Positions 2,906 through 26,937 of a stretch of DNA of 36,736 nt are shown in pieces. Under the pieces are notes generated by a model. It had not been told where the DNA came from. It was given only the letters and a program-made list of their open reading frames with translations, and did not search any database. A program made the position numbers and the translations under genes. Source of the DNA: Aureococcus anophagefferens (lineage: Eukaryota; Sar; Pelagophyceae; Pelagomonadales; Pelagomonadaceae); assembly GCF_000186865.1 (NCBI RefSeq), contig NW_008705575.1, positions 894,396 to 931,131 of the forward strand, given 5' to 3'. Positions within the stretch are counted from its first letter, which is position 1; every line of letters starts with the position of its first letter.

Positions 2906-4051
2906 TCAGCCGAAGCAGAGGAAGAAGAAGAGGAGCGTGCCGACGGAGAGGATGCCCGCGCGCATGCGGCGCATGGCGACGCGCTCGCGGTGCGTCGCGG
3001 ACTGGACCGCGGGCTCCTCGAGGAACGCGAAGCAGGTCCACTTGAAGCGGCCCGGGCCGCGTCGCCGGTCGGGCACGAGGCCGAATTGGAGCGCGAAGAG
3101 CGACGGGAAGTAGCCCCGCTGGCGCAGGCGCGCGGCGCCGAAGACGCCCGCGGGCACGGCCGCCGCGGCGTCGCCCGGCCGGTCCGCGAGGCGCCGGAGC
3201 GCGCCCTGGGAGTCGCGCGCCTCCTCGTCCGTCGCGCGCCGCGCGTCGGCGTCGCGGCGCCGCGCGGCGCGGCGCTCGTCGTCGGCGACCTCCGCCGCGG
3301 CCCGGTCGCGGAGCGCGCCGACGAGGGCCCGGAGCGCGTCGAGCTGGTCGTCGGACAGGCCCTTGTCGTCGTCGGCGGCGGCGGCGTCCTCCCGCAGCGG
3401 GTTCTCGACGTCGCCCGCGTCGGAGTCCGGGTCCTCGAGGAGCTTGCCGAGGTGCTTGCGCCGGCTCCGCCCGGCGCGCCGGTCCGCCTCGCGCTCGATG
3501 AGCGCCTCGATGATGTTCAGCGCCTCCGACGACCCGTCGGGCGCGGACACGCGCGCGCCCGCCTCGACGAGCGCGCGGGCCGCGGGGAAGCGCCGCGTCG
3601 CGCAGGCCGCGAGCAGGGCCGGCCGCCCGCCGTCGTCGCGCGCGTCCGGGTCCGCGCCCGCGTCCAACAGCCGCGCGACCTCTCCCAGCAGCGCGCGCTC
3701 GCGGGACTCCCAGTCCGCGGGCGCGGGCAGCTCGCGCTCGGCACCGACGAGGGCGACGACGCGCGCGCCGAGGCGGCTCCGGTAGGCGGCGATCATGGAC
3801 GCGAGGTGCCGGTTCGGCACGAGCGTCCGCGACGGCAGCGGCGCGTTCGTCGTCGGCGACCGCCGGTCCGGGCCCATGTCGAGCCACCGCTCGATGGCAC
3901 TCCGCTCGTAGGTGAAGCCGTCGCTCGCGATGACGGGCTCGACCATGACCTCCTGCGTGATGGGGCACAGCAGCGACGGCGGGGCGCCGCCCTCGTCGTC
4001 GTCGCCGCCGTCGTCGACGAGGAGCGGCTCGGAGTCGTCGTTGGTGTCCAT
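2906..4051 (-). CDS. U-box/ankyrin-repeat protein with C-terminal membrane anchor
   Basis: 381 residues from ATG at 4051. An acidic N-terminus leads into a U-box at about 27-95: LLCPITQEVM, then EPVIASDGFTYER, then a conserved W in IERWL. U-boxes recruit E2 enzymes, so this is probably an E3 ubiquitin ligase. Residues ~115-175 contain ankyrin-like repeats (LLDAGADPDARDDGGRPALL, LVEAGARVS). The middle is charged and Ala/Arg-rich. The last ~20 residues (GILSVGTLLFFFLCFG) form a single hydrophobic tail that could anchor it in a membrane. The frame stays open for 67 codons upstream of 4051, to an ATG at 4252, but that extension is Arg/Ala-rich and sits in the divergent promoter, so the shorter start is preferred. 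The ankyrin repeats probably select the substrate (inference). Confidence 0.8.
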   Translation of the reverse strand: MDTNDDSEPLLVDDGGDDDEGGAPPSLLCPITQEVMVEPVIASDGFTYERSAIERWLDMGPDRRSPTTNAPLPSRTLVPNRHLASMIAAYRSRLGARVVALVGAERELPAPADWESRERALLGEVARLLDAGADPDARDDGGRPALLAACATRRFPAARALVEAGARVSAPDGSSEALNIIEALIEREADRRAGRSRRKHLGKLLEDPDSDAGDVENPLREDAAAADDDKGLSDDQLDALRALVGALRDRAAAEVADDERRAARRRDADARRATDEEARDSQGALRRLADRPGDAAAAVPAGVFGAARLRQRGYFPSLFALQFGLVPDRRRGPGRFKWTCFAFLEEPAVQSATHRERVAMRRMRAGILSVGTLLFFFLCFG

Positions 4052-5884: not shown

Positions 5885-8800
5885 TTAGTAGTTCCGCGAG
5901 TGCTGGACCGCGGTCTTGTGCTTGTTGACGTAGTGCGTGACGATGGCCTGCTGGTGGGCCGCGTGGGGGCTCTGCTTCTTCCGCAGGGCCGGGTCGTCGT
6001 CCTCCATGCCCGGGAGGCGGTAGACGCGGCCGCGCTGGCGCGCGACGAGGAGGCGGCCCTCGCAGCGCGCGACGCGCTGCTCGCACTTCGTCGTGAGCGC
6101 CTTGAACTTCTGGCCCATGACGCGCTCGGCGATGCGCATGCGCTCGAGCGCCGTCTCGCGCGCGGCGCCCTGCTTGCTCTCCAACGCCTCGCGCGCGTTC
6201 GTGTGCTGCGCGAGCATGGCCTCGACGACGCGCGCGTTGTGCCGGACCTCGTTGTCGCGCTTCGGCGGCAGGCCCGCGGCGGTCTCGACGCCCGGCGTCT
6301 CGACGACGCAGAGCGCGTTGCGGTTGTGGCGGCAGATGTAGGGGTTCTTGCAGGCGCAGCGCACGAACTTTTGCTTCGAGATCGCGCCCGCGGCCGTGCC
6401 GTCGTTCCGCGTGAAGTTCTCCGCGACCTTGTCGATGAAGGTCTGGGCCTCGTCGAGGTGGCGCTGCTGCATGTCGTCCCGCTCGCGCTCGTGCTTGCGC
6501 GTCATGTTGTTGACCTCCCAGTCCTGCTTCTTCTTCAACGCGAGCTTCGCCCGCGCGCTCCTCGTACGCACGTGCTCGAGCTCGCGCGTCAACCGGCCGT
6601 GCTCGACCATGTCCGGGTGGAGCTCCTTGACCTCGTGGCGGTGGCTGTCGAGCAACGTGCTCAAATCCTGGGCGCTGAGGAGGTCGTCCTCGTACTGCTG
6701 GATGAGCGCCTTGTCGCCCTCGGCCTTGACGTCCGCCATCGCCGTAAATAAAAGCTTGCGCTGCTTCTCGTAGCCGTAGGAGCACCACTTGCGGCGGCTG
6801 TCGCGGTCCGCGAGGCCCGCGTCCATGAGGCGCGGCGACTTGGCGCCCGTGGCCGTGACGCGGTGCGAGTTCGCGAGCGACGTCGTCAGCGCGTTCGGCA
6901 GCGCGAGAAGCCCCGCGTTGCCGCCGAAGCGCGCCTGGAGCGGCGCCGCGCTGTTGTCGGCCTCCTTGAGGTGGCGGTCGAGCTTGCGGTTCGAGACCTT
7001 GGCCCAGGAGAGCTCGACGTCGCCCGCGGCGTGGCGCCGCTCCGCGCGCGCCGCTTCCAACCGCCGGTCCGCCGCGTGCCGCGACGGCGGCGCCGCGAGC
7101 AGCCCGCAGAGCGTGCTCGCCACGTGCAGATCATCTCTCAAAGTCTCCGGGTCCAGCCCGCAGAGAAGCACGGCGCTCAGGTCGGGGACCGCGGCCGCGG
7201 GCTGGCAGAGGCAGAGGCCCGGCGCGCACGCCTCCTCCGCGGACGCGTCCGCGCCGTCCGTCGTCGCCCGCGGCAGGAGCACGCGCTTGCCCGGCCGGCC
7301 CTCCCGCAGGCACGCGTGGAGCGCCGTCGGCACGAAGTCCGCGACGTCGCGCCGCTCCCGGTCCGCGAGATCCCGGAACCGACCGTTCGCGAAGCGGACT
7401 TTCAGCTCGCGGTCCACGAGGAGCACGGCCAGGGGCGCGTCGTCGAGGGCCACGTCCAGCAGCCCGAGCTCCGACGGCCGGTTGCCCAGGAGCAGGCTCG
7501 CCGTGTCCTCGAGCGTCGGCGTCCGGAAGAGCACGTCCGGGTGGGAACCGACGGCCGCGTCCTCGCCCAGGAACGACGGCAGCAGCGCCTTCGCCAGGTA
7601 GGGGTAGAGCGCCCTCCGCCGCTCCGCGACGAGGTCCAGGTTCATGCGAGCCATGGACCCCATGGGGATCTCCAGCGAGCTGAAGTAGTAGAGCGCGTTC
7701 CCGTGCATGCGCAGGAGCAGCTCCCGGAGCTTGTCGATCTTGTCCTGGCGCTCCTTGCACGCGAGGGCCGCGTCGACGTCGAGCACGAAGCGCAGCAGGC
7801 CCCGGGCGACGATCGTGCAGTCCTCGGCGGCCTCGGCCCACTTCAGTAAAGCCCGGCGCGGCTTCGCGCCGTCGAGCACCGCGTCGAGCGTCGCGACCCA
7901 GCGCGCGCCGCCCTTGGCGCGGTCGTCGCGCGCGCGGAAGCCCTCGACGGTGAGCCAGCAGGCGAGGGCCAGGGGCGCCCGCTCGAGCGCGTCGGCCGCG
8001 CCGACGTTGACCCACGCGGCGTCTGCCGCGCTCGTCGACCGCGGCAGCCGCCGGAGCGTCGCGTCGACGGCGAGGAGCGCCTTGCCGAGCTTGTCCGCGT
8101 CGTTCGTGACGCGCACCTGGAAGCCCAGCGTGTACGCCGGCTCGCCGAGCGCGTCCCGCAGCGTCACGAGGACGACCATGCACTTGAAGCGGTCGCCGCT
8201 CCGGTCGTAGCAGTAGAGCGTCGTGAGGCTGTCCCTGTGGACGCGGAGGGACGCGGACAGCTCTTCCACCAGGAACGGCTGGGACCGGTCGCGGGCCGAC
8301 CGGCCCCGGTTGAGGAAGCGGCAGTTCCGGCCCACCGCGTCCGCGAAACTGTAGAGCGTGAGCTTCGTGAAGCCCGCGGACCTGTGTGGAATTCAAATCT
8401 TCAACCCGACTTCAATGTGCGCGTATGCGACAGTTTTGACGCAATCTCTTCGGCTGTGCTTCGAGAACTCGACGAGAGCAATCGATTCGTCCAAAAATCA
8501 GCCGAATCGACTTCGATTCGACCGAGCTAGAGAATTCTGAAGGTTGGTCAGGACCACCCAAACCAGTGGTTGGTTTCCACACAGCCGCGGACACGTAGGC
8601 CAGGGGCAGCCCCGGCGCGCGCAGGTCGCTGCAGCACACCCCGATGTCGTCGCCGACCTCGTGGGCGACGGCGGGCACCATGTCGAGCCACGTGCCCGAC
8701 CGCTTGACCGCGAACGCCGCGGCCGTCGGCGCGGCCGTCGTCGGGCCCGCGCCCGCGTCCGCGGCCGCGACGTCCGCGTCGCAGAGCTCCTGGATGATCT

Positions 8801-11052
8801 CGAGGCCGACCTTGGACGCGAGGAGCGGCGCGAGCACGAGGTCGACCAAACACTCCTGGACGCAGGCCTTCGTCGCGCGGATCGACTTCTCGACGAAGGC
8901 CCGGCGGCCCGACTCGAGGAGGAGCTTCGCGACGTGGTCGCGGCACGACTCCGCCAGGGTCCGCCCCGCGGCCCACAGGGGCTGCTCGGGCGCCGCGTAG
9001 CTCGGCCGCGGCCCCCGGCCGGACGACCCGACGGAGAGCGCGCGGCTCATGGGCGCCTGTGTGGAATTCAACCACTGGTTTGGGTGGTCCTGACCAAACT
9101 TCAGAATTCTCTAGCTCGGTCAAATCGAAGTCGATTCGGCTGATTTTTGGACGAATCGATTGCTCTCGTCGACTTCTCGAAGCGCAGCCGAAGAGATTGC
9201 GTCGAAACTGTCGCATATGCGCACATTGAAGTCGGGTTGAAGATTTGAATTCCACACAGATGGGCGCGGGCGGAGAGTAGGACCCCGCGGCGGCCGCCGT
9301 CCGCGAGTGGCGCGCGGACCGCGTGCCCCCCGGCGCCGGGCCCGCGGGCGCCCGCGGCGAAAAGAGGTCCGCGGCCCACTCGACGGCGTCGTCGACGCAC
9401 GCGACGTCGCCGCTCGACTTCTTGCGGATCCGCGACGGCCGCTTCTCGCGAGCCAACGCGACGGCGAGCTGCTGCTCCGTCGCGCGCGCGTCCCAGAAGT
9501 CGCGCCGCACCTCGTCGCAGAAAAGCGCAAAACAGGCGAGGTCGTCGTCGCCGAGCGACGACGCGTGGACCGGCGGCTCCGGGTCGTCGCGGTGGCCGCT
9601 GTGGCCGTCGCGGTGGTCCAGGAGCTTGCTCTTCGGCGTCGCCGTCGCCAGCAGGCGCAGCGCCCCGTCCGCGGCGAAGAGCACGTTCCGCAGCAGCGCC
9701 GCGAGCCCCGCGCAGCTGCCGTCGATGTAGTCGCGCACGTGGTCGCCGACCGTGCCCGGCGCCCGCAGGATCGCGTCGAGGCACGCCGCGGGATGCGCGA
9801 GCCACACGGCCCGCGTGTACAAATAGTTGACGCGCTTCGCGAAGTGGGTCGGGTGGCCGTCGTGGCCCTCGCGGCCCTGGGCGCGCTCGAGAGACTGGCG
9901 GCGCTTCTCCAGAAAGGCCGCGGACGACGTCTCGGGCGCGCGGAGGCCGTAGTTCCGCGCCCACTCCGCGCTCTTGTAGCGCACCTTGACGGGCAGGGAC
10001 TGGAGCAGGCGCCCGAGGCTCGCGAGCTCGCGCCTTTGGGCCATGGCCGACGCCTCGCGGCCCGCGCGGAGCTCGAACTGGACCGCGATGACGAAGCGGT
10101 AGCAGCCGTCGCCGTCGTAGACGGGCGTCATCGTCAGAAGATTTCGAAAGGGCTCCTGGTTCTTCCGGTAGTTCTTGATGACGACGTGGGCACCCTTGCG
10201 CGCCGCCAGGGACTCCCGCAGAATCTCCACGGCGTCCGTCTCCGTCTCCGGGCCCTGCAAGAATCGACAGTTCCGCCCGACGCACTCGTCGAACGCGTAG
10301 CCCGTCATGCGGCAGAACTCGCCGTTCACATAAACCATGGGCGCGCCGGGCGCCGCCATGTCGCTGACGGCGACGCAGAGCTGCAGCGTCTCCGCCATGG
10401 AGACGAGCACGCCGAGCCACGCCTCCATGTTCGCCGGGAGCCGCCGCCGGAGCCGGCCGAGCGTCGACAGCAGCGCCGCGGCGACGTCGCCGCCCGGGTC
10501 CTGCGGTTCCAGCGCCTCCGCCGCTTCCTGCCAATCATCATACAACTCGCTGTGGAGGAAGCGGGGCAACGCGGTGATCGCCAAGCCCTGGACCAGCGAG
10601 TCGCACTCCTCGACGCACCACTCGAGCTTGGACCAGCTCCGCACGCCGACGTCGAGCTGCAGGCCATCAATATAATCCTTCCAGAGCTCGCGCGCCGCCA
10701 GGTTGCGCTTCTCGCTCACCTTGCGGTGGCAGATGCCGTAGGCCGCCTTCCGGCTGAACTCGGTCCAACTCGCGTTCGCGCGCTCGAGCACGCGGTTCAT
10801 GTTCTTGTCGCGCTGCATGAGCCGCACGTTCTTGATGAAGTCGACGTGGCGCTTCTCGTCGCTGTGGAGGCTCCGGAAGAAGGGCTCGGCCAGCGACGGC
10901 ACGGCGAAGATGAGCATGTGCACGGCCGTGACGGCGTCGCCGCAGAACTTCGTGTCCACGTGCGTCGGCAGGGCGCGCGCCGCCGCCTCGAGCGACGCCG
11001 GGCCCGCCCGGTCGTGGATCGCATGCCGCACGCGGTCCACGTCGCGCTGCAT
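5885..11052 (-). CDS. RGS-LOV-LOV-PAS coiled-coil protein, putative blue-light G-protein regulator (three exons)
   Basis: Exons 11052-9268, 9056-8593 and 8381-5885 join in frame to give about 1581 residues. N-terminus (~27-174): RGS-like domain, clearest at its end (ARELWKDYIDGLQLD, LPRFLHSELYDDW). LOV1 (~222-328): VYVNGEFCRMTGY, GRNCRFLQGPETE with photoactive Cys near 262, then NYRKNQEPFRN and the Gln of AVQFEL, so flavin binding is expected. LOV2 (~730-840) is split by intron 2. Joined, it reads AYVSAGFTKLTLYSFADAVG before GRNCRFLN, with Cys near 770, but both flavin-contact Asn residues are Cys (CYDRSGDRFKC). A third PAS-like segment lies near 1060-1117, and the C-terminal third is charged coiled coil with a Cys/His cluster (CACKNPYICRHN). 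RGS domains speed GTP hydrolysis by G-alpha, so light-gated G-protein control is a fair inference. Start: ATG 11052; upstream open frame lacks an ATG. Confidence 0.8.
8382..8584 (+). mobile_element. Introner-like non-autonomous DNA transposon, copy A
   Basis: A 203-bp element with terminal inverted repeats: left CTGTGTGGAATTC, right GGTTTCCACACAG, where the inner bases have diverged. It is flanked by a perfect 8-bp target-site duplication, CCGCGGAC at 8374-8381 and 8585-8592. It is about 96% identical (about 8 differences by eye) to copy B at 9057-9259 in the opposite orientation. It has no coding capacity and is far less GC-rich than the surrounding exon. It sits within the LOV2 coding sequence, and removing it with one duplicate restores the LOV frame. 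Introners that make introns by transposition are known from Micromonas and Aureococcus; that this is such an element is inferred from structure. Confidence 0.9.
8382..8592 (-). other. Spliceosomal intron made by introner A (GT-AG)
   Basis: Read on the coding strand, the intron starts GTCCGCGG, the upstream target duplicate, and ends CCACACAG, the element terminus. The donor GT is thus taken from the duplicated host sequence and the acceptor AG from the transposon. The 211-base length is not a multiple of three, so retention would shift the frame. Splicing rejoins TACGT to GTCCGCGGGC and yields an uninterrupted LOV domain, which is strong support for the boundaries. Confidence 0.85.
9057..9259 (-). 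mobile_element. Introner-like non-autonomous DNA transposon, copy B
   Basis: A 203-bp element, the reverse complement of copy A with about eight differences. Its termini are CTGTGTGGAATTC and GAATTCCACACAG, a perfect 13-bp inverted repeat. The target duplication is ATGGGCGC at 9049-9056 and 9260-9267. It lies in the linker between LOV1 and LOV2. The perfect terminal repeats and short duplications suggest recent mobility. No transposase is encoded here, so an autonomous partner must act in trans. Confidence 0.9.
9057..9267 (-). other. Spliceosomal intron made by introner B (GC-AG)
   Basis: Removing the element plus one target duplicate (211 bases) rejoins TCTCCGCCC to GCGCCCATGAGC and keeps the reading frame, giving SPPAPMSRALS. 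The only boundary pair that does this and ends in AG begins with GC, so this should be a GC-AG intron, a known minor class. The GTGTGG inside the terminus offers an alternative GT donor. However, using it would leave extra bases and break the frame with every nearby acceptor I tried. Confidence 0.75.
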
Positions 11053-11302
11053 GGTCGCCGCGTCTAGCGCGCGCCGACGATCATCGAGGAAGCACCATGC
11101 TTGGGAGAGCGCAATGGATGAAACCGTGGTCGGCAAGCTGGGCTGCCTGAGATTCAGCTGTGCTTCAACGTTTCTCAAAAAGTGGATGTTTTCCCCAAAA
11201 GCGAGGCGATAGAGCGTCTCCGGCACCTGTCTTCAGCACCCATCGCCGCGTCCATCGACATCCCCGACCGCGCTCGACCGCCGCCGCGGCCCTGATGCGC
11301 CC
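11053..11302. promoter_or_regulatory. Divergent promoter region of the RGS-LOV gene and DPH3
   Basis: A 250-base gap between divergent start codons, with GC content visibly lower than the flanking exons in its left two-thirds. The minus-strand frame is open through much of it but lacks an ATG before 11052, supporting a non-coding reading. No specific elements were recognised. Confidence 0.4.
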
Positions 11303-12837: not shown

Positions 12838-13007
12838 TTTTTTCGGCTCTTATCGCGCGCGCGCTTTCGCGTCCCGGCCGACCGTCGCGACGGCGCCGGG
12901 CCCCTTTCGCGCGCGGCGAGGAGCCCTCTCATCGTCACGGGGGTCGCGGCGAGAGCGGCGTGGCGCGTGGCCTCGGCGGCACGACGCTCGCGACGGGCGC
13001 CGCGCAC
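12838..13007 (-). pseudogene. Out-of-frame remnant of the shared C-terminal module of G1
   Basis: In a frame different from that of G1 the minus strand reads LAATPVTMRGLLAARE. This aligns with AAIPVTSREILAAREE at the C-terminus of G3 and with the matching end of G6. The DNA also aligns, but a stretch encoding the WLWRR motif is missing and a run of T has grown near 12837-12845. G1 itself now stops at 12935 after a Pro/Arg tail. The module was therefore probably lost from G1 by frameshift and deletion. Confidence 0.65.
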
Positions 13008-16000
13008 GGCCAGGAGGCGTCGCGCTCCGCCTTCACGGCCTCTTCGCGTTCCAGGGCGCGCTGGCCCTCCGCTTGGAGCGCGCGCCTCCTTTCACCGACC
13101 GAAGGTCTTGCCTCCTTGGTTTCGAGCCGCGGCGTCTTCGGCTTGGCGACGCTCGGCGGCACGACGCTTGCGACGGGCGCCGCGCACGGCCAGGCGCCTT
13201 CGCGTTCCGCCTTCTCGGCCGCCTCCTTCTCCAGGGCGCGCTGGCCCTCCGCTTGGAGCGCGCGCCTCCTTTCACCGACCGAGGGGCGCGCCTCCTGCTC
13301 GTTCTCGAGCCGCTGCGTCTTCGGCTCGTCGCGAACCGGCTTCTGGAGCCTCGCGAAGGACTCGGCCGCGGCCCGCGCGTCGGCTTCGGCCCGCGTCGCC
13401 TGCTGCGGCGTCTTCGGCTTGGCGACGCTCGGCGGCACGACGCTCGCGACCGGCGCCGCGCATGGCCAGGATGCTACGCGCTCCGCCTTCTTGGCCGCCT
13501 CGCTTTCCAGGGCGCGCTGGCCCTCCGCTTGAAGCTCGCGTCTCCTTTCAGCGACCGAGGGGCGCGCCTCCCGCTCGGTCTCGAGCTGCGGCGTCTTCGG
13601 CTTGGCGACGCTCGGCGGCACGACGCTCGCGACGGGCGCCGCGCATGGCCAGGAGGCTACGCGCTCCGCCTTCTTGGCCGCCTCGCTTTCCAGGGCGCGC
13701 TGGCCCTCCGCTTGGAGCGCGCGCCTCCTTTCCGCGCCCGAAGGTCTCGCCTCCCGCTCGGTCTCGAGCTGCGGCGCTTCCGCCTCGGCGACGCGCGGCC
13801 GGTCCTTGAGCTGCAGCGTCTTCGGCTCGTCGACACGCGGCCGCTTGACGCTCGCAACAGGCGCCGCGCATGGCCAGGCGGCTTCGCGTTCCGCCTTCAC
13901 GGCCTCTTCGCGTTCCAGGGCGCGCTGGCCCTCCGCTTGGAGCGCCCGCCTCCTTTCAGCGACCGAGGGGCGTGCCTCTTGCTCGGTCTTGAGCTTTGGC
14001 GTCTTTGGCTCGTCGACGCGCGGCCCGGTCTCGAGCTGCGGCGCTTCCGCCTCGGCGACGCGCGGCCGCTCGACGCTCTCGACGGGCGCCGCGCACGGCC
14101 AGGCGGCTTCGCGCTCCGCCTTCTTGACCGCCTCGCTTTCCAGGGCGCGCTGGGCGTCTGCTTGGAGCGCGCGCCTCCTTTCAGCGACCGAGGGGCGTGC
14201 CTCCCGCTCGGTCTTGAGCTTTGGCGTCTTTGGCTCGTCGACGCGCGGCCCGGTCTCGAGCTGCGGCGCTTCCGCCTCGGCGACGCGCGGCCGCTCGACG
14301 CTCTCGACGGGCGCCGCGCACGGCCAGGCGGCTTCGCGCTCCGCCTTCTTGACCGCCTCGCTTTCCAGGGCGCGCTGGGCGTCTGCTTGGAGCGCGCGCC
14401 TCCTTTCAGCGACCGAGGGGCGCGCCTCCTGCTCGGTCTCGAGCCGCGGCGCTTCCGCCTCGGCGACGCGCGGCCGCTCGACGCTCGCGACGGACGCCGC
14501 GGCCTCCTCGGCCGCCATGACCGCGAGCTCCTCGCGCCGCTGTTCGGCCTCGTGCGCCCGCGACGCGGCGGAGGCCGCGAGCTTCCTGGCCGAGCTCGCG
14601 AGGGACGCCGCGGTCGCGGCGGCTTCGCGCTCCGCCTGCTTGGCCTTCGCGCTTTCAAGGACGCGCCGGGCCTCCGCTTGGAGCGCGCGCCTCCTTTCCG
14701 CGACCGAAGGCCTCGCCTCCGGCTCGGTCTCGAGCGGCGGCGCTTCCGCCTCGGCGACGCGCGGCCGCTCGACGGACGCCGCGGCCGCGGCTTTTTCGGC
14801 CGCCACGGCCAGCTCCACCATCCGCTGATGGGCCTCGTGCGCCCGCGACGCGGCCGAGCGCTCGGGCCCGCCCCAGACCGCCATCTTCGCGGCGTTGCTC
14901 GCGAAGGACGCCGCGGTGCCGGCGGCCTCGCGCTCCGCCTGCTCGGCCGCCTCGCTTTCGAGGACGCGCCGGCCCTCCGCTCGGACCGAGAGCCGCCTCT
15001 CCTTGGCAGCGCGCAGCTGCGCCGCTTCCGCCTCGGCGACGCGCAGCTGCGCCGCTTCCGCCTCGGCGACGCGCAGCCGCTCGAGGCTCGCGACGGACGC
15101 CGCGGCCTCCTCGGCCGCCTCGGCTTCGAGGCGCTCGGCTTCGAGGAGCTCGGCCTCGAGGAGCTCGGCCTCGAGGCGCTCGGCTTCGAGGAGCTCGGCC
15201 TCGAGGCGCTCGGCTTTCGCGGCCGCGTCGATGGCGAGCTCGAGCGCCGTGTCCTCGCTCGCGTTCGTCGCGTAGGAGCGGAGCTCCGCGTCGGACTTCT
15301 TGGCGCCTTCGAAGGTCGAGAGCGCGAGGCGGCCGACGGACCGCGCGAGCTGCCCCACGGAGCTCTCCTCGTCGAGGGCGCTGGCGACGGCCGCGGCGCC
15401 CGCGGCGACGGTCGCGAGCTCGACGTCGATGCCGAGGCCGACGGCGCCCACGGCGAGCGCGGCGGCGCCCGCGAGCGCGCTGGGGTCGAGCGCGCTCTGG
15501 CGCTTGCCCTTGCCCTTCTTGCGCGCGACGAGGGGCGCGGCGTCCTTGTAGGCTTGCTGCGCGTCGGCGTTGAGCGCCTTCCACTTCTCGCCGAGCTTGG
15601 CCATGACACGCTGGTTCAGCTCCTTCTTGTCGAGGCCCGCGTTCGCCGGGTCCGCCTCGACCTCGGCGCGCGTCGCCGCGCGCGACTCGTTGGAGAAGTG
15701 GAGGTAGCCGCTCAGCCGGACCATGTCGGGCTCGACCTCGCCCTCGAGCGCCGTCGCGGCCGGCGGCGCTTCCGCGGCCGGCGGCGCTTCCGCGGCCGGC
15801 GGCGCTTCGGCCTCGGGCGCCGGCGCCGGCGGCGCGGGCGGTGCCGTCGCCTCGGCGGGCTCGGCCGCGACGGACGCCGAGCGGAGCGGGGCCGCGGGCG
15901 ACGCGGCCGAGGCGTCCGCCTCCGGCGGCGGCGACGGCGCCGCGTCGGGCGTCCTCGGCCCGTCGAGGAACGGCTTCCGGAAAGTCGCGTCGACCTCGCC

Positions 16001-18067
16001 CCACACCGCGAACTTCGCCGCGTTGCTCGCGATGGACGCCGCGGTGCCGGCGGCGTCGCGCTCCGCCTGCTCGGCCGCCTTGATGTCCGCGACGCGCTGG
16101 GCCTCCGCCTGGAGCGCGCGCCTCCGTTCCGCGACCGCGAGGCCCGCGTCCTCCTCCGTCTTGAGCCTCCGCGTCTTCGGCTCGTCGCGGACCGGCTTCT
16201 TGAGCTTCGCGTCGGCCTCGGCCGCGGCCCGCGCGTCGGCTTCGGCCCGCGCCGCCGTCGCCGCGACCTGCTGCTTCGCCCAGGCGGCCGCTTCCTCCGC
16301 CTGCTCGGCCGCCTTGATGTCCGCGACGCGCTGGGCCTCCTCGCGGAGCGAGAGCCTCTTTTCCGCGACCGGGAGGCTCGCCTCGTCCTCCGTCTTGAGC
16401 TTCAGCGGCCTCGGCTCGTGGGGAACCGGCTTCTTGAGCCTCGCGAAGGAGTCGGCCACGGCCCGCGCGTCGGCTTCGGCCCGCATCGCCGCGGCCGCGG
16501 CCTGTTGCTTCGCCCAGGCGGCGCCGCGCTCCGCCTGCTCGGCCGCCTCGCGCTCCAGGACGCGCTCGGCCTCCTCGCGGAGCGCGCGCTTCCTTTCCGC
16601 GACCGGGAGGCTCGCGTCCTGCTCCGTCTTGAGCTTCGGCATCTTCGGCTCGTCGCGAACCGGCGTCCGGAGCCGCGCCAAGGAGTCGGCCACGGCCCGC
16701 GCGTCGGCCTCGGCCCGCGTCGCCTGTTGCTTCGCCCGCCAGGCGGCTGCCTCCTCCGCCCGCGCGGCGGCCTCGCTCTCCAGGACGCGCTGGGCCTCCT
16801 CTCGGAGCGCGCGCCTCCTTTCCGCCACCACGGGGTTCGCGTCCTCCTCCGTCTTGAGCTTCGGCGGCTTCGGCTCGTCGCGAGCCGGCGTCTTGAGCCG
16901 CGCGAGGGAGTCGGCCACGGCCCGAGCGTCGGCTTCGGCCCGCGTCGCCTGTTGCTTCGCCCGCCAGGCGGCGTCGCGCTCCGCCTGCTCGGCCGCCTCG
17001 CGTTCCAGGACGCGCTGGGCCTCTGCATTGAGCGCGCGCCTCCTTTCCGCGACCGCGGGGCTCGCCTCCTGCTCCGTCTTGAGCGGCGTCTTCGACTCGT
17101 CGCGAACCGGCGTCTGAAGCCTCGCGAAGGACTGGGCCGCGGCCCGCGCGTCGGCTTCGGCCCGCGTCGCCTGTTGCTTCGCCCGCCAGGCGGCTTCGTG
17201 CTCCGCCTGCTCGGCCGCCTTGCGTTCCAGAACGCGCTGGGCCTCCGCTTGGAGCGCGCGCCTCCTCTCCTCGGCAGCGCTCAGCTGCGGCGCTTCCGCC
17301 TCGGGCGAAGCGTCATGTCGCTTTCCTTCGCGCTCCGCCTGCTTGGCCGCGTCGCTCTCCAGGACGCGCTCGGCCTGCGCTCGGAGCGCGCGCCTCCTTT
17401 CCGCGACCAGGGAGCTCGCCTCCTGCTCCGTCTTGATCTTCGGCGTCTTCGGCTCGTCGCGAACCGGCTTCAGGAGCCTCGCGAAGGAGTCAGCCACGGC
17501 CCGCGCGTCGGCTTCGGCCCGAGTCGCCTGTTGCTTCGCCCGCCAGGCGGCGTCGCGCTCCGCCTGCTCGGCCGCCTTGCGTTCCAGGACCCGCTGGGCG
17601 TCCGCGTGGAGCGCGCGCCTCCTCGCCGCGGGACTGCTCAGCTGCGGCGCTTCCGCCTCGGCGACGCGCGGCGGCTCGAGGCTCGCGACGGACGCCGCGG
17701 CCTCCTCGGCCGAGGCTTCTTCGGCCGCCATGGCCGCGAGCTCCTTCGGTTGCGCTTCGGCCTGCTCCTCCGCCTCGGCGGCGTCGAGCCGCTCCTGCGT
17801 CGCCCGTTCACCGTCCTCGGGCGTGTACGCGCGAAGCTCCGACACGGCGCCCTCGACCGCGTCGAGGAAGGAGTCCGATCCCGTGGGCAGAGGTGCGGAG
17901 GGGTAGACGGGCAAGTCTTCGCCGGCGCCGCCGTCGGCGCCGCCCATGCGCAGGGCGCGCCATGCCTTCTTCGTCGGTGCGACGAAGCCGGTGGCCGCCT
18001 GGACGAGCACGCATGCGATGAGAAGCGGCGCGGGGCGGCGCCCGGCGCGTCGATTCTGTTGCACCAT
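12935..18067 (-). CDS. G1: giant plastid-targeted repeat protein with HMG box
   Basis: 1710 residues from ATG at 18067. The N-terminus has a signal-peptide-like core (PLLIACVLVQAATG) followed by FVAPTKKAW, the Phe-after-cleavage pattern of stramenopile bipartite plastid leaders. About 17 copies of a 60-95-residue unit follow (consensus AERRRALQAEAQRVLE, AEQAEREAAW, ATRAEADARA, PKTPKLKTE), predicted helical. Near 780-850 an HMG-box-like domain interrupts them: MVRLSGYLHFSNESRAATRA, then LGEKWKALNADAQQAYKDAA and a KKGKGKR tail. A glycine-zipper-like module follows (~860-925, ALAGAAALAVGAVGLGIDVE). Later repeats carry a WPCAAPV motif. The HMG box suggests DNA binding, possibly in the plastid nucleoid (inference). 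The C-terminus appears shortened by frameshift relative to G3 and G6. Strongest family relatives in the window are G3 and G2. Confidence 0.8.
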   Translation of the reverse strand: MVQQNRRAGRRPAPLLIACVLVQAATGFVAPTKKAWRALRMGGADGGAGEDLPVYPSAPLPTGSDSFLDAVEGAVSELRAYTPEDGERATQERLDAAEAEEQAEAQPKELAAMAAEEASAEEAAASVASLEPPRVAEAEAPQLSSPAARRRALHADAQRVLERKAAEQAERDAAWRAKQQATRAEADARAVADSFARLLKPVRDEPKTPKIKTEQEASSLVAERRRALRAQAERVLESDAAKQAEREGKRHDASPEAEAPQLSAAEERRRALQAEAQRVLERKAAEQAEHEAAWRAKQQATRAEADARAAAQSFARLQTPVRDESKTPLKTEQEASPAVAERRRALNAEAQRVLEREAAEQAERDAAWRAKQQATRAEADARAVADSLARLKTPARDEPKPPKLKTEEDANPVVAERRRALREEAQRVLESEAAARAEEAAAWRAKQQATRAEADARAVADSLARLRTPVRDEPKMPKLKTEQDASLPVAERKRALREEAERVLEREAAEQAERGAAWAKQQAAAAAMRAEADARAVADSFARLKKPVPHEPRPLKLKTEDEASLPVAEKRLSLREEAQRVADIKAAEQAEEAAAWAKQQVAATAARAEADARAAAEADAKLKKPVRDEPKTRRLKTEEDAGLAVAERRRALQAEAQRVADIKAAEQAERDAAGTAASIASNAAKFAVWGEVDATFRKPFLDGPRTPDAAPSPPPEADASAASPAAPLRSASVAAEPAEATAPPAPPAPAPEAEAPPAAEAPPAAEAPPAATALEGEVEPDMVRLSGYLHFSNESRAATRAEVEADPANAGLDKKELNQRVMAKLGEKWKALNADAQQAYKDAAPLVARKKGKGKRQSALDPSALAGAAALAVGAVGLGIDVELATVAAGAAAVASALDEESSVGQLARSVGRLALSTFEGAKKSDAELRSYATNASEDTALELAIDAAAKAERLEAELLEAERLEAELLEAELLEAERLEAEAAEEAAASVASLERLRVAEAEAAQLRVAEAEAAQLRAAKERRLSVRAEGRRVLESEAAEQAEREAAGTAASFASNAAKMAVWGGPERSAASRAHEAHQRMVELAVAAEKAAAAASVERPRVAEAEAPPLETEPEARPSVAERRRALQAEARRVLESAKAKQAEREAAATAASLASSARKLAASAASRAHEAEQRREELAVMAAEEAAASVASVERPRVAEAEAPRLETEQEARPSVAERRRALQADAQRALESEAVKKAEREAAWPCAAPVESVERPRVAEAEAPQLETGPRVDEPKTPKLKTEREARPSVAERRRALQADAQRALESEAVKKAEREAAWPCAAPVESVERPRVAEAEAPQLETGPRVDEPKTPKLKTEQEARPSVAERRRALQAEGQRALEREEAVKAEREAAWPCAAPVASVKRPRVDEPKTLQLKDRPRVAEAEAPQLETEREARPSGAERRRALQAEGQRALESEAAKKAERVASWPCAAPVASVVPPSVAKPKTPQLETEREARPSVAERRRELQAEGQRALESEAAKKAERVASWPCAAPVASVVPPSVAKPKTPQQATRAEADARAAAESFARLQKPVRDEPKTQRLENEQEARPSVGERRRALQAEGQRALEKEAAEKAEREGAWPCAAPVASVVPPSVAKPKTPRLETKEARPSVGERRRALQAEGQRALEREEAVKAERDASWPCAAPVASVVPPRPRATPLSPRPP
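13961..14410 (-). repeat. Two near-identical 225-bp tandem units inside G1
   Basis: The segments 13961-14185 and 14186-14410 each begin at GACCGAGGGGCG and encode the same 75-residue unit, with the motifs PRVDEPKTPKLKTE, ADAQRALESEAVKKAERE and WPCAAPVESV. Their near identity, against the diverged neighbouring units, marks a very recent in-frame duplication. Confidence 0.85.
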
Positions 18068-18199
18068 TATCTACAGAACTCGCGCGCTCATTACAGAACT
18101 CGAAGACGCCGTACGTCAGCTTCAATATCTCTTCACCATTGGGCGCTCGGCGGCGCGCGCGCTTCCCCGAGAGGAGTCGGACAGGCTCCGGACGCGCGT

Positions 18200-18337
18200 G
18201 CGGCCTCTTCCCCGCGCTGCAAAGGACATGGTTCGAGCAGCGCAGGGCCTATGGGGCGGCCCACGGCATGCCCGCCAACGACAGAACCCTGTGACGACTG
18301 ACCAGCGCACGTACGACCCGATGGCCTGTTCGTTTTA
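18200..18337 (+). pseudogene. Decayed copy of the GT8 3' end (before G2)
   Basis: It reads PALQRTWFEQRRAYGAAHGM and PANDR, matching PALHRIWFEKRRAYEAAHGM and PSNDK at the C-terminus of the GT8 gene at 11522-12826. An 11-base insertion then adds a stop and shifts the frame, after which QRTYDPMACSF matches QRKYDPMAFAF. The original stop codon is changed to TAC. G2's own stop codon on the opposite strand lies in this last stretch. Confidence 0.85.
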
Positions 18338-21250
18338 CCACCCCGGATTATTCTCGTCGCTTTCTCTTTCGTGCGTCTGACGAGCCTCCCGAGGCTCCGC
18401 GCGTCGCAGCGCCTCGACCGTCGCGCGGAGTTTCGCGGCCTCGCCGCGGAGCTCGGCGGCCTCCGCCGCAGCGTCATCGTCGCTCGCGACAGACGCCGCG
18501 GCGTTTTCGTCCGCCATGGCCGCGAGAGGGTCGACGCGCGGATCGTTGCTCGCGACGGAAACAGCGGCTTCTGCGGCCGCCATGGCCGCGAGCATGATCT
18601 CCTCGCGCCTGCTTTCTGCGACCGAGGGGCTCGTCTTCTCCTCCGTCCTGAGCTGCGGCGTCTTCGCCTCGTCGACGCGCGGATCGTTGCTCGCGACGGA
18701 AACAGCGGCTTCTGCGGCCGCCATGGCCGCAAGCATGATCTCCTCGCGCCTCCTTTCCGCGACCGAGGGGCTCGTTCTCTCCTCGATCTTGAGCTGCGGC
18801 GTCTTCGACTCGTCGACGCGCGGATCGTTGCTGGCGACGGACGCCGCGGCTTGTGCGGCCTCCATGGCCGCGAGCATGATCTCCTCGCGCCTCCTTTCCG
18901 CGACCGAGGGGCTCGTCCTGTCCTCGATCTTGAGCTGCGGCGTCTTCGCCTCGTCGACGCGCGGATCGTTGCTGGCGACGGACGCCGCGGCTTGTGCGGC
19001 CTCCATGGCCGCGAGCATGATCTCCTCGCGCCTCCTCTCCGCGACCGAGGGGCTCGTCCTGTTCTCAATCGTGAGCTGCGGCGTCTTCGCCTCGTCGACG
19101 CGCGGATCGTTGCTCGCGACGGACGCCGCGGCTTGTGCGGCCTCCATGGCCGCGAGCATGATCTCCTCGCGCCTCCTCTCCGCGACCGAGGGGCTCGTCC
19201 TGTTCTCGATCTTGAGCTGCGTCGTCTTCGACTCGTCGACGCGCGGATCGTTGCTGGCGACGGACGCCGCGGCTTGTGCGGCCTCCATGGCCGCGAGCAT
19301 GATCTCCTCGCGCCTCCTCTCCGCGACCGAGGGGCTCGTCCTGTTCTCGATCTTGAGCTGCGTCGTCTTCGACTCGTCGACGCGCGGATCGTTGCTGGCG
19401 ACGGACGCCGCGGCTTGTGCGGCCTCCATGGCCGCGAGCATGATCTCCTCGCGCCTCCTCTCCGCGACCGAGGGGCTCGTCCTGTTCTCGATCTTGAGCT
19501 GCGGCGTCTTCGACTCGTCGACGCGCGGATCGTTGCTCGCGACGGACTCCAGGGCTTTGGCGGCCGCCATGGCCGCGAGCATGACCTCCTCGCGCCTCCT
19601 TTCCGCGACCGAGGGGCTCGTCCTGTTCTCGATCTTGAGCCGCGGCGTCTTTGGCTCGTCGACGCGCGGATCGTTGCTGGCGACGGACTCCAGGGCTTTG
19701 GCGGCCGCCATGGCCGCAAGCATGACCTCCTCGCGTCTCCTCTCCGCGACCGAGGGGCTCGTCCTGTTCTCGATTTTGAGCTGCTGCGTCTTCGCCTCGT
19801 CGACGCGCGGATCGTTGCTCGCGACGGACTCCAGGGCTTTGGCAGCCGCCATGGCCGCAAGCATGACCTCCTCGCGCCTCCTCTCCGCGACCGAGGGGCT
19901 CGTCCTGTTCTCAATCTTGAGCGTCTTCGGCTCGTCGAAACGCGGCTTGTTGCTCGCGATGGGTGCCGCGGCTTTTTCAGCCTTCGCCATGGCCGTGCGC
20001 TGGAGCTCCTCGCGCCTTCTTTCCGCGACCGCGGGGCTCGTCCTGTTCTCGATCTTGAGCGTCTTCGCCTCGTCGAAGCGCGGCTTGTTGCTCGCGATGG
20101 GCGCTGCGGCTTTTTCAGCCTTCGCCATGGCTGTGCGCTGGAGCTCCTCGCGCCTTCTTTCCGCGACCGCGGGGCTCGTCCTGTTCTCGATCTTGAGCGT
20201 CTTCGGCGCGTCGAAGCGCGGCTTGTTGCTCGCGATGGGCGCGGCGGCTTTTTCAGCCTTCGCCATGGCCGTGCGCTGGAGCTCCTCGCGCCTCCTCTCC
20301 GCGACCGCAGGGCTCGTCCTGTTCTCGATCTTGAGCTGGAGCGCCTTCGGCTCGTCGAAGCGCGGCTTGTTGCTCGCGATGGGCGCCGCGGCCTTTTCAG
20401 CCTTCGCCAGGGCCGCGCGCTGGAGCTCCTCGCGCCTCCTTTCCGCGACAGCGGGGCTCGTCCTCTCCTCGGTCTTGAGCTGGAGCGCCTTCGGCTCGTC
20501 GAAGCGCGGCTTGTTGCTCGCGATGGGCGCCGCGGCCTTTTCAGCCTTCGCCATGGCCGCGCGCTTGAGCTCCTCGCGCCTCCTTTCCGCGACAGCGGGG
20601 CTCGTCCTCTCCTCGGTCTTGAGCTGGAGCGCCTTCGGCTCGTCGAAGCGCGGCTTCTTGCTCGCGACGGACGCCGCGGCTTGTTCGGTCGCCAGGGCCG
20701 CGCGCTGGAGCTCCTCGCGCCGCCGCTCGGCCTTGGGCGCCAAGGCGGGCTCGCCAGAGGCCACGGGCTTCGCGGCCGAGGCGTCCTCGTCCGGCGGCTG
20801 CGACAGCGGCGTGTTGGGCATCTTTGGCTCGTCGCGAATCGACTTCAGGAGCTTCAGGAGCTTCGCGGAGGTCGCGGCTTCTTCGGCCGCCAGGGCCTCG
20901 AGCTCCTCGCGCACCGGTTTCCGGAGCTTCGCGTCGGCCTCGGCCGCGGCCCGCGCGTCGGCGTCGGTCTCGGCCGCCTCCTCCTTCGGTTGCGCTTCGG
21001 CATGCTGCTTCGCCTCGGCGGCGTCGAGCTGCTCCTGCGTCGCCCGTTCTCCGTCCTCGGGAGTGTACGCGCGAAGCTCCGACACGGCGCCATCGACGGC
21101 GTCGTCTTCGACGGTGCCGCCGTCGGAGGAGCGCAAGCGCAGGGAGAGCCATGCGTTCTTCGTCGGTGCGACGAAGCCGGTGGCCGCCTGGACGAGCATG
21201 CATGCGATGAGAAGCGGCGCGCGATGGCGCGCGGCGTAACGTCGTCGCAT
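18335..21250 (-). CDS. G2: plastid-targeted protein with 47-residue tandem repeats
   Basis: 971 residues from ATG at 21250. The leader PLLIACMLVQAATG plus FVAPTKNAW is almost the same as in G1, and the next ~60 residues are also shared (AVSELRAYTPEDGERATQE). After an Ala/Glu-rich linker come about 16 copies of a 46-47-residue repeat: IENRTSPSVAERRREE, MLAAMEAAQAAASVASNDPR, VDESKTPQLK. The first five copies use SNKPRFDEPK instead. Each repeat is probably two helices joined by a short basic/proline link. There is no known domain. The last residues (DENNPGW) are read from sequence that descends from the region beyond the GT8 stop, so the C-terminus was probably captured from 3' flanking DNA. Plastid location is inferred from the leader. 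Confidence 0.8.
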   Translation of the reverse strand: MRRRYAARHRAPLLIACMLVQAATGFVAPTKNAWLSLRLRSSDGGTVEDDAVDGAVSELRAYTPEDGERATQEQLDAAEAKQHAEAQPKEEAAETDADARAAAEADAKLRKPVREELEALAAEEAATSAKLLKLLKSIRDEPKMPNTPLSQPPDEDASAAKPVASGEPALAPKAERRREELQRAALATEQAAASVASKKPRFDEPKALQLKTEERTSPAVAERRREELKRAAMAKAEKAAAPIASNKPRFDEPKALQLKTEERTSPAVAERRREELQRAALAKAEKAAAPIASNKPRFDEPKALQLKIENRTSPAVAERRREELQRTAMAKAEKAAAPIASNKPRFDAPKTLKIENRTSPAVAERRREELQRTAMAKAEKAAAPIASNKPRFDEAKTLKIENRTSPAVAERRREELQRTAMAKAEKAAAPIASNKPRFDEPKTLKIENRTSPSVAERRREEVMLAAMAAAKALESVASNDPRVDEAKTQQLKIENRTSPSVAERRREEVMLAAMAAAKALESVASNDPRVDEPKTPRLKIENRTSPSVAERRREEVMLAAMAAAKALESVASNDPRVDESKTPQLKIENRTSPSVAERRREEIMLAAMEAAQAAASVASNDPRVDESKTTQLKIENRTSPSVAERRREEIMLAAMEAAQAAASVASNDPRVDESKTTQLKIENRTSPSVAERRREEIMLAAMEAAQAAASVASNDPRVDEAKTPQLTIENRTSPSVAERRREEIMLAAMEAAQAAASVASNDPRVDEAKTPQLKIEDRTSPSVAERRREEIMLAAMEAAQAAASVASNDPRVDESKTPQLKIEERTSPSVAERRREEIMLAAMAAAEAAVSVASNDPRVDEAKTPQLRTEEKTSPSVAESRREEIMLAAMAAAEAAVSVASNDPRVDPLAAMADENAAASVASDDDAAAEAAELRGEAAKLRATVEALRRAEPREARQTHERESDENNPGW
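18529..20690 (-). repeat. Tandem 141-bp coding repeats in G2
   Basis: The block containing GTCGACGCGCGGATCGTTGC recurs every 141 bp (for example at 18671, 18812 and 18953), which is 47 codons, so copy-number change keeps the frame. Units in the middle are almost identical, and those toward the G2 N-terminal end (right side) are a diverged subtype of 46-47 codons. The gradient suggests expansion from the centre by slippage or unequal exchange. Confidence 0.85.
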
Positions 21251-21334
21251 TTGAAGAATTCCCTAGTCCATTGTGCCCGCCTTCTTCAATTTTAACAGTG
21301 CACCATCGGCGCGGCGCGCGCGCGTGCGAGAGGC

Positions 21335-21445
21335 TCGACCGCGCTCGACCGGATCCCGATAGAGAAGCGCCGGACCTACGAGGCCGTGCCCGCCAACGGC
21401 CGCCCCTGCCAACGCACAGACGACCCGGTGGCCTTAGCGTTTTAA
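21335..21445 (+). pseudogene. Decayed copy of the GT8 3' end (before G3)
   Basis: It reads RIPIEKRRTYEAVPANGR, PCQRTDDPVALAF and a stop, matching RIWFEKRRAYEAAHGMPSND, KPCQRKYDPMAFAF and the stop of the intact GT8 gene, with a small deletion over AHGM. The TAA stop on the plus strand overlaps the TAA stop of G3 on the minus strand (21442-21445), the same convergent layout as at the other copies. Confidence 0.85.
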
Positions 21446-22392
21446 CTACGCTGCTTCTCTTCGGCTTTCATCGCCTTCTTTCGCGCGTCCCGCCGCCAGA
21501 GCCAGCGGCCCGCGAGGCGACCGAGCGTCGCGACGGCGCCGGACTCCTCGCGCGCGGCGAGGATCTCCCGCGACGTCACGGGGATCGCGGCGACGGCCGC
21601 GAGGCGCGCGGCCTCGTCGGCCGATGCTTTTGCGGCCGCCAGGGCCGCGAGCTCCTCGCGCCGCTGCTCGGCCTTGTGCGCCCACGCGGGCTCGCCGGCG
21701 CCGGCCGGCGCGCCGTCCTTCGGCGGCTGCCACAGCGGCGTGTAGAGCGTCTTCGGCTCGTCGCGGGCCGGCTTCCGGAGCTTCGCGGGCGCGTCCGCCG
21801 CGGCCTCCGTGGCGTCGATGGCGAGCGCGAGCGCCTTGCCCTTGATCGCGTCCGTGACGCCGACCTCCGCGTCGAACCGCTTCGCGCCCTCGAAGGTCGA
21901 GAGCGCGAGGCGGCCGAGCGACCGCGTGAGCTGCCCGACGGAGCTCTCCTCGTCGAGGGCGCTGACGACGGCCGCGGCGCCCGCGGCGACGGTCGCGAGC
22001 TCGACGTCGACGCCGAGGCCGACGGCGCCCGCGGCGAGCGCGGCGGCGCCCGCGAGCGCGTTCGGGTCCAGCGTCGTCGGCGACCGAATCGCGTGCTCCG
22101 CGGCGTCGCCCTCGAGCGTCGGAGCGGCCGGCGGCGCTTCGGCCCTGGGCGCCGGCGCGGCCGGCGCGGGCGTCGCCTTCGCCGCGGCGGGCGCGGCCGC
22201 TACGGCTCCCGCGTGGAGCGAGGCCGTGCCCACCGGTGGGGCTGAGTGTTCGGCGCCGCCTTCGGCGACGCGCAGGGCGCGCCATGCCTTCTTCGTCGGT
22301 GCCACGAAGCCGCTGGTCGCCTGGACGAGCATGCATGCGATGAGAAGCGGCGCGCGGCGGCGCTGGGCGTGTGGATTCTGTCGTGCCATCAT
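21442..22392 (-). CDS. G3: plastid-targeted protein with glycine-zipper module and WLWRR C-terminus
   Basis: 316 residues from the first of two ATGs at 22392 and 22389. The leader PLLIACMLVQATSG and FVAPTKKAWRALR marks it as plastid-type. A Pro/Ala linker leads to the hydrophobic module (~107-165): LDPNALAGAAALAAGAVGLG, then VDVELATVAAGAAAVVSALD, then SSVGQLTRSLGRLALSTFEG. The G-x-x-x-G/A spacing could support membrane insertion or helix packing. A KLRKPARDEPKT linker and an [11 protein letters not shown] helix follow. The C-terminus has IPVTSREILAAREE, then LAGRWLWRRDARKKAMK. It has far fewer repeats than G1, G2 and G4 and may be close to the ancestral form, because it holds all shared modules in one short protein (inference). 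Confidence 0.8.
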   Translation of the reverse strand: MMARQNPHAQRRRAPLLIACMLVQATSGFVAPTKKAWRALRVAEGGAEHSAPPVGTASLHAGAVAAAPAAAKATPAPAAPAPRAEAPPAAPTLEGDAAEHAIRSPTTLDPNALAGAAALAAGAVGLGVDVELATVAAGAAAVVSALDEESSVGQLTRSLGRLALSTFEGAKRFDAEVGVTDAIKGKALALAIDATEAAADAPAKLRKPARDEPKTLYTPLWQPPKDGAPAGAGEPAWAHKAEQRREELAALAAAKASADEAARLAAVAAIPVTSREILAAREESGAVATLGRLAGRWLWRRDARKKAMKAEEKQRS

Positions 22393-22497
22393 GCGTCTGT
22401 GTCTGAGGTGTCCCTTGGATTCGCTGCACGCTCGGATTGTTGCAGTGCACCTTCAGCCGTCGCGCCGCGCCGATCGCAAACAAACACGGAATCCAGA

Positions 22498-22625
22498 TGC
22501 CCCGCGCTCCACCGATCTGGTTCGAGAAGCGCAAAGTCCTTTGGGGCGGCGCGCGGCATGCCCTCCAACAACAGACCCTGCCAGCGCAAGTACGACCGCG
22601 CTGGCCTCAGCCTTCGCATTCTAGT
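22498..22625 (+). pseudogene. Decayed copy of the GT8 3' end (before G4)
   Basis: The DNA from CCCCGCGCTCCACCG through GGTTCGAGAAGCGC, CGGCATGCCCTCCAACAAC and CCCTGCCAGCGCAAGTACGA matches the end of the GT8 gene closely, with one-base shifts and an insertion near the end so that no single frame is kept. This is the least diverged copy at DNA level over its first half, and it lies just before the G4 stop codon on the opposite strand. Confidence 0.85.
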
Positions 22626-22632
22626 AGGATTG

Positions 22633-25464: not shown

Positions 25465-25635
25465 CGCGTCGCGCCGGACAGAAGCACCAATTCTCGACCT
25501 TCGGGTTGGGTTGGCGTCAACGTGAAGTTTTCAGCGGGTGTTCAATGAGCCGCCGAAAGCGTCACGCGTCCGCTCACGTGCACGCTCGCTCGTCGACAGC
25601 CGGCGTGACTTTGCTAAAAGAGGCACAAAGGAAGC

Positions 25636-26697: not shown

Positions 26698-26937
26698 AGT
26701 CGGGAGCCGGTCGGAAGCTGCTTCAATGAGTTCAACGGCTTCGTTATCTTCGTTCTCGGCCCCGCGACGCAGCGGCTGCCGCAGCGCGCCCGCGCGGCGC
26801 CAACTACGACCCGAAAGCCTCCAAGTTCCCAATATGCGCCTACACTTCCCAGGAAATTCGCGGCCGTGTCGGGCGAGGGCCAATTCTGCTTGATGTACAT
26901 GCGTATCTCGAAGTCGCGCTGGAGACGCCGCGAAGAC

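What the first reader, a model, noticed from the sequence alone, without database searches (positions are those of the whole stretch)
8374..8592. Introner A creates an intron inside a LOV domain, borrowing its donor site from the target duplication
A 203-bp element with CTGTGTGG/CCACACAG ends sits between perfect 8-bp duplicates. Taking the GT of the upstream duplicate as donor and the terminal AG as acceptor removes exactly element plus duplicate and restores an uninterrupted LOV signature on either side (AYVSA then GFTKLTLYSFADAVGRNCRF). This is an unusually clear example of intron birth by DNA transposition, as described for introners in Aureococcus and Micromonas.
Basis: partly seen in the sequence, partly recalled or inferred. 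Interest (0 to 1): 0.9.

Follow-up and report, generated by a model that had tools for sequence, protein, structure and literature searches.

The report
Jumping DNA that became an intron
A 203-base element with the marks of mobile DNA sits inside a light-sensor gene of the brown-tide alga Aureococcus, flanked by two copies of an 8-base target; the cell likely cuts it out of the RNA as an intron, using one splice signal from the element and one borrowed from the copied target, a striking but already described way of making new introns.

Summary
The gene is on the minus strand; removing element plus one TSD gives a 211-nt GT-AG intron and an ungapped PAS/LOV frame. A second, inverted copy (9057-9259) in the same gene needs a GC donor. 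The species is Aureococcus anophagefferens (97.7-99.1% over aligned residues).

I turned the example into a test. All 99 TSD-flanked copies found in the fetched loci have GT/GC at the TSD start on at least one strand (background 35%). On the separately inferred coding strand it is 87 of 88 (background 20%); the opposite TSD end is at background (15 of 75). The AG on the gene's 3' side is intact in 73 of 73, its mirror T in 64. This fits selection for splicing with a co-opted donor.

It belongs to the introners already in print for this species. Not shown: RNA evidence, the transposase, and whether an in-frame GT 12 nt downstream (adding 4 residues) is sometimes used; two strain gene models use it.

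The parts
8382..8592 (-). Inferred intron 1 (211 nt, GT-AG, phase 2): one TSD copy plus the element
   Evidence: excision leaves an open frame reading AYVSAGFTKLTLYSF; no RNA evidence
8382..8584 (.). Introner copy 1, 203 bp, CTGTGTGG...CCACACAG ends
   Evidence: the 40 scored genome matches are 93-100% identical
8374..8381 (.). TSD copy CCGCGGAC; on the gene strand this is the retained, exonic copy
   Evidence: exact match to 8585-8592
8585..8592 (.). TSD copy CCGCGGAC; on the gene strand GTCCGCGG, whose GT is the inferred co-opted donor
8382..8384 (-). CAG, the inferred acceptor, carried by the terminal inverted repeat
   Evidence: CAG intact in 73 of 73 oriented copies
8577..8584 (-). CTGTGTGG end on the 5' side of the intron; holds the alternative in-frame donor CTGT|GTGG (+12 nt)
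   Evidence: model B open in frame; strain gene models use this GT of copy 1 (P0004, joined to a later acceptor) and of copy 2 (P0003)
9057..9259 (.). Introner copy 2, 203 bp, inverted relative to copy 1
   Evidence: arms 94% complementary
9049..9056 (.). TSD copy ATGGGCGC of copy 2, retained in the exon
9260..9267 (.). TSD copy ATGGGCGC of copy 2; on the gene strand GCGCCCAT, inferred GC donor
9057..9267 (-). Inferred intron 2 (211 nt, GC-AG, phase 0)
5885..8381 (-). Exon downstream of intron 1, to the stop codon; holds most of the second PAS/LOV-like domain (GRNCRFL)
8593..9056 (-). 464-nt exon between the two introners
9268..11232 (-). Upstream coding exon (open from a stop at its 5' limit; true start not determined), with a first PAS/LOV domain
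   Evidence: PAS_9, 53.3 bits

Best explanation
The 203-bp element has the hallmarks of a non-autonomous DNA transposon copy (an introner), flanked by a perfect 8-bp target-site duplication inside a minus-strand PAS/LOV gene of Aureococcus anophagefferens, and it is likely removed from the RNA as a 211-nt intron whose donor GT would come from the duplicated target and whose acceptor AG would come from the element's terminal repeat. Shown here: the anatomy, the restored frame, and the pattern over the fetched copies (GT/GC at the TSD start on the inferred coding strand in 87 of 88; AG intact on the gene's 3' side in 73 of 73). Inferred: that a transposase cut the target 8 bp apart and the gap was filled in; that insertions without a usable donor were lost by selection; that the spliceosome uses these two sites. 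Because both ends read CTG...CAG, the element can work in either orientation (42 and 33 of 75 copies).
For: Perfect TSDs and ends. Frame restored and ungapped against a related full-length protein, P0005, at both junctions. 99 of 99 TSDs carry GY on at least one strand; 10 of these lie in loci picked by a different end pattern, where all 12 upstream TSDs do so, as read off. 87 of 88 on the coding strand (either TSD copy counted) against 20%; 85 of 86 after removing two near-identical pairs; 74 of 75 with the stricter first set. GY at the opposite end of the TSD is 15 of 75, the background level, so this is not a symmetric target preference. Terminal A of the acceptor 73 of 73 against 64 of 73 for its mirror, Fisher p 0.003. 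86 of 88 copies lie in confidently coding flanks against 716 of 970 random sites of the same loci. Retaining copy 1 gives a stop about 60 codons on.
Against: No RNA read was examined. Annotated proteins of two Aureococcus strains do not use the TSD donor: P0003 splices site 2 after CTGT (adds ICAP), and P0004 has AYVSAAV at site 1 and then skips the LOV core. One copy, L058, has GA at the TSD start on the inferred coding strand. A paper passage says that the introners of A. anophagefferens have canonical splicing motifs (PMC7789003), while half of the copies here would need a GC donor. Retaining copy 2 brings no stop before 8593, though its 211 nt shift the frame. No autonomous element with these ends was found. 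The related protein shows the ancestral sequence, not which splice site is used now. The codon model was trained on the same loci it scores.
Confidence: 0.93

Rival explanations
1. The element carries both splice sites: the donor is the GT inside its own end (CTGT|GTGG), the acceptor its terminal AG, and splicing leaves 12 extra nt (8 from the TSD, 4 from the element), adding four residues.
For: Both insertions stay in frame under this model. Exactly this arithmetic is reported for an introner family of another Aureococcus sp. (PMC9860276 Fig. 2F legend). Gene models P0003 (SPPAPICAPMSRAL) and P0004 (AYVSAAV) use that GT.
Against: It puts no constraint on the TSD, yet 87 of 88 TSDs start with GY on the coding strand. 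The T of that GT is no better kept than its mirror (69 of 73 and 69 of 73; the G is 73 of 73 and so is its mirror). Four extra residues would fall inside the PAS/LOV core, where P0005 has none. At site 1 neither gene model keeps the LOV core, so they are weak evidence.
Confidence: 0.05
2. The GY at the TSD start is a target preference of the transposase, not a trace of splicing; the element is an ordinary miniature transposon that damages the gene.
For: Each of 99 TSDs has GY on a strand, including copies with other interiors.
Against: A sequence preference alone cannot know the coding strand, yet the GY end agrees with it in 87 of 88, and the opposite TSD end is at background (15 of 75). The terminal AG is kept better on the gene's 3' side than its mirror.
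Confidence: 0.01
3. The repeated introns spread through RNA (reverse splicing), as PMC9860276 (passage) reports has been proposed for fungal introners.
For: Copies lie almost only in coding sequence and with GY on the sense strand.
Against: 8-bp TSDs and terminal inverted repeats, and copies in both orientations relative to the gene (42 and 33 of 75), which an RNA copy of an intron would not be expected to give.
Confidence: 0.01

Closest known systems
Introner elements of Aureococcus anophagefferens (Huff et al. 2016, Nature; recalled, paper not held)
   Same: Same species; non-autonomous elements, TIRs, 8-bp TSDs, one splice site carried and one co-opted (recalled). PMC9481584 gives about 210 bp as their characteristic intron length (passage); the introns here are 211 nt.
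   Different: No structural difference known to me. I add a coding-strand test, a mirror test of the acceptor, and the relative acceptance of GT and GC donors; I cannot say which of these Huff et al. already report.
Introner family 4 of Aureococcus sp. TARA_AOS_82_MAG_00129 (PMC9860276 Fig. 2F, passages)
   Same: 8-bp TSD; splicing keeps 8 bp of TSD and 4 bp of the element, the same distance as between the two possible donors here.
   Different: That family is said to carry both splice sites and to add four residues; the family here shows selection on the TSD donor. Its example is at positions 3289-3365 (77 bp), not 203 bp. Sequences not compared.
Introners of Symbiodinium microadriaticum (PMC9860276 Fig. 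2B, passage)
   Same: TIRs, acceptor carried by the element, donor co-opted from the TSD.
   Different: 4-bp TSD; that paper found no homology between introners of different genera (passage). Not compared here.

Membership tests
Introner (DNA-transposon type) | Many near-identical copies in one genome | tested here: met
   255 matches of the 15-base end, 0 in the reversed control; median 4.9% divergence from consensus in the 91 of 99 copies that are over 85% identical to the window copy
Introner (DNA-transposon type) | TIRs and TSDs | tested here: met
   99 copies with a TSD differing by at most 1 of 8, in 88 of 99 loci scanned; 11 loci gave none under the relaxed scan
Introner (DNA-transposon type) | Copies lie in genes and excision leaves an open frame | tested here: met
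   86 of 88 copies in confidently coding flanks with the frame open at the junction; 1 further copy dropped for short flank
Introner (DNA-transposon type) | One splice site carried, one co-opted | tested here: met
   GY on coding strand 87 of 88; AG 73 of 73; evolutionary evidence only
Introner (DNA-transposon type) | Spliced in RNA | not testable with these tools
   No reads available; the two strain gene models at hand disagree with each other
Introner (DNA-transposon type) | Mobilised by an identified transposase | tested here: inconclusive
   PF05699, PF10551, PF18758, PF12762, PF20700: 0 matches, but the control rang only for PF10551 and PF12762; PF21787: one degenerate match without paired introner ends in the readable surroundings
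Aureococcus anophagefferens introners | Same species | tested here: met
   P0003 (A. anophagefferens) 98% over 35% of the queried region, 1406 of 1419 aligned residues overall; P0004 1102 of 1128
Aureococcus anophagefferens introners | Sequence match to the published consensus | not tested
   Huff et al. not held
LOV/PAS domain | Profile match and GRNCRFL motif at the interrupted domain | tested here: inconclusive
   PAS_9 21.9 bits spliced seamlessly, 18.8 with four extra residues, both under the 27-bit cut-off; the GRNCRFL motif is present. P0005 aligns here without a gap

The most novel reading that the evidence does not exclude
The geometry of this family gives each insertion two frame-safe donors exactly 12 nt apart, a borrowed GT/GC at the TSD start and a built-in GT in the terminal repeat, so insertions at weak GC donors (such as copy 2 here) make two protein isoforms that differ by four residues; and the unexplained 39.6% of GC-AG introns reported for this alga is largely the footprint of introners landing in GC-rich exons, where GC is about three times as common as GT as a target.
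Probability: 0.3. Interest if true: 0.55.

Novelty: already known. Interest (0 to 1): 0.35.

Why it matters
It is a clean, readable case of how a spliceosomal intron can arise in one step, and the family is a natural experiment in which many insertions have already been sorted by whether their target offered a donor. In the 75 copies, GT targets are over-represented about tenfold and GC about threefold relative to coding background, and everything else is nearly excluded. That offers a measure of how well GC donors work in this alga, and a likely answer to what a 2011 comparison called an enigma, its 39.6% of GC-AG introns (PMC3033335, passages).

Tried and rejected
Autonomous partner: five transposase families (PF05699 hAT, PF10551 MULE, PF18758 KDZ, PF12762 IS1595, PF20700 Mutator) gave no match; only two of these five had a working control. 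That hAT, P and KDZ elements make 8-bp TSDs is recalled. PF21787 (P-element-like) gave one degenerate match with three stops inside on C25; the readable part of its surroundings has two octamers one base off CTGTGTGG and none like CCACACAG, so no pair. A pattern excluding the known interiors gave 16 places, of which I fetched the 12 not yet held: 11 are short elements with a partner end at 147-208 bp and a TSD with at most 2 mismatches, 1 has no such TSD. The RAG-like transposon of this species (PMC9435367, passages) has 5-bp TSDs and other ends.

Pfam scores cannot decide between the two donor models, since seamless splicing is by construction the pre-insertion sequence. A search for short homologous proteins (transcript fragments) across the two junctions found nothing. 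Reverse splicing and target preference were rejected for the reasons given under rivals.

Counts set aside: L001 (same as window) and L027 (same as L008); also two short pairs, L006 (80 bp) and L074 (63 bp, an internally deleted copy); one copy with short flanks; L089-L100 have too little flank for the coding test. The copies come from the first 100 of 255 listed ends (78 elements, contigs C1-C7), 2 more C7 matches and 8 loci, the window, then the 12 loci. 17 of the 40 scored matches were never fetched.

Full report
What is there. On the plus strand the order is TSD CCGCGGAC (8374-8381), element (8382-8584, 203 bp, CTGTGTGGAATTC...GGTTTCCACACAG), TSD CCGCGGAC (8585-8592). The gene is on the minus strand. 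Read that way, GCCTACGT is followed by GTCCGCGG, the element, and GTCCGCGG again. Removing 8382-8592 leaves GCCTACGT|GTCCGCGGGC, the presumed pre-insertion sequence, and a frame open from 11232 to the stop at 5885-5887 when the second element is removed too. The second copy, 9057-9259 with TSD ATGGGCGC, lies in the same gene 464 bp upstream, inverted relative to the first. Its TSD on the gene strand is GCGCCCAT, so seamless removal needs a GC donor. A scan of the window for exact 8-bp TSDs around CTG...CAG with at least 5 inverted end bases, 50-450 bp long, found these two alone.

Where it comes from. The spliced protein matches P0003 and P0004, annotated as Aureococcus anophagefferens proteins (98% over 35% and 64% over 100% of the queried region; over aligned residues 99.1% and 97.7%; the gene models differ in their exons).

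How many copies. The 15-base end occurs 255 times, its reversed control 0 times. I fetched 80 loci of about 3.2 kb, 8 came, and 12 short ones followed. A relaxed scan found 99 elements in 88 of 99 loci (window included, two duplicate loci left out). Of the other 11 loci, 9 were looked at with BLAST and hold diverged, truncated or TSD-poor copies; L092 and L094 were looked at.

Test of the co-opted donor. All 99 TSDs start with GT or GC on at least one strand, where 35% of octamers in the same DNA do. To ask whether this follows the gene, I trained a codon model on the loci, removed each element with one TSD, and picked the best open frame through the site without using the TSD rule. GT or GC stood at the TSD start on that coding strand in 74 of 75 copies of the strict set and 87 of 88 of the relaxed set, where either TSD copy could count. 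86 of 88 were confident coding calls, and 85 of 86 remain when two near-identical pairs of loci are counted once. In random coding sites of the same loci GT plus GC make up 20% (4.7% and 15.4%, n 2719). The other end of the TSD shows GY on the reverse strand in 15 of 75, about background (23%). A transposase with a sequence preference alone would not know the coding strand; selection on splicing does. The exception, L058, has GA.

Test of the carried acceptor. Both ends of the element read CTG...CAG, so each copy has its own control. In the 73 copies whose TSD orients them one way only, the final AG on the gene's 3' side is intact in 73; at the mirror positions of the other end the C is kept in 72 and the T in 64 (Fisher p 0.003 for A against T). 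The element lies in either orientation (42 and 33 of 75).

Seamless or plus twelve. The 5' end of the element has its own GT, CTGT|GTGG. Using it keeps 8+4=12 nt and the frame. A paper reports just this for another Aureococcus family (PMC9860276, passages and section 26). P0003 has the resulting ICAP at site 2, and P0004 AYVSAAV at site 1. Neither model keeps the LOV core at site 1; at site 2 both resume at the element's acceptor. I prefer the TSD donor since only that explains the GY rule, and since the built-in GT is kept no better than its mirror (T 69 of 73, mirror 69 of 73). Both may occur.

GC donors. In 75 copies the dinucleotides at the TSD start are 37 GT, 37 GC, 1 GA. Against background, GT is over-represented about tenfold and GC about threefold, so a GC target seems accepted about a third as often as a GT target. 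A 2011 study found 39.6% GC-AG introns in A. anophagefferens and called it an enigma (PMC3033335, passages). Introners landing in GC-rich exons are a likely answer; whether the 2016 paper already says so I could not check, as it is not held. Against this, PMC7789003 (passage) describes the introners of this species as having canonical splicing motifs.

What is not shown. No RNA evidence, no empty allele, no transposase. The paper searches (listings; passages of five papers) named no mobiliser in what I read; PMC9860276 points to a supplementary table on mobilising elements that I could not see, and most subscription papers are not held.

Verdict. Ordinary for this alga, but a very clear example; already known as a kind and in this species.

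Noticed in passing
G000:C21:374777-382645 (minus): Eight matches to the LOV domain about 1.0-1.2 kb apart, each listed with a 4092-residue open frame, some pairs with equal scores: perhaps a giant multi-LOV protein or a tandem expansion.
   Followed up: no
window 12900-27800: A long stretch of direct repeats with spacings of 15, 141 and about 225 bp, many in multiples of three.
   Followed up: no
L101:2073-2519 (G000:C25:178372-178818): A degenerate match to PF21787 (P-element-like transposase) with three TAG inside; no paired introner ends in the readable surroundings, 1562 unreadable bases, mostly on the left.
   Followed up: partly
L021, L033, L053, L069, L077, L083: A recurrent end variant CTGTGCCG / CGGCACAG in otherwise similar copies, perhaps a subfamily.
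   Followed up: no
L089-L100: Short elements with the same ends and often other interiors, 11 of 12 of 147-208 bp; all 12 upstream TSDs carry GY on a strand.
   Followed up: partly
L058:1527-1730: The one copy with GA at the TSD start on the inferred coding strand; a GT lies 3 nt upstream, whose use would drop one codon.
   Followed up: partly
fetched loci: 86 of 88 copies lie in confidently coding flanks, against 716 of 970 random sites in the same loci; loss of harmful insertions in genes does not by itself explain the lack of intergenic copies in this sample.
   Followed up: partly
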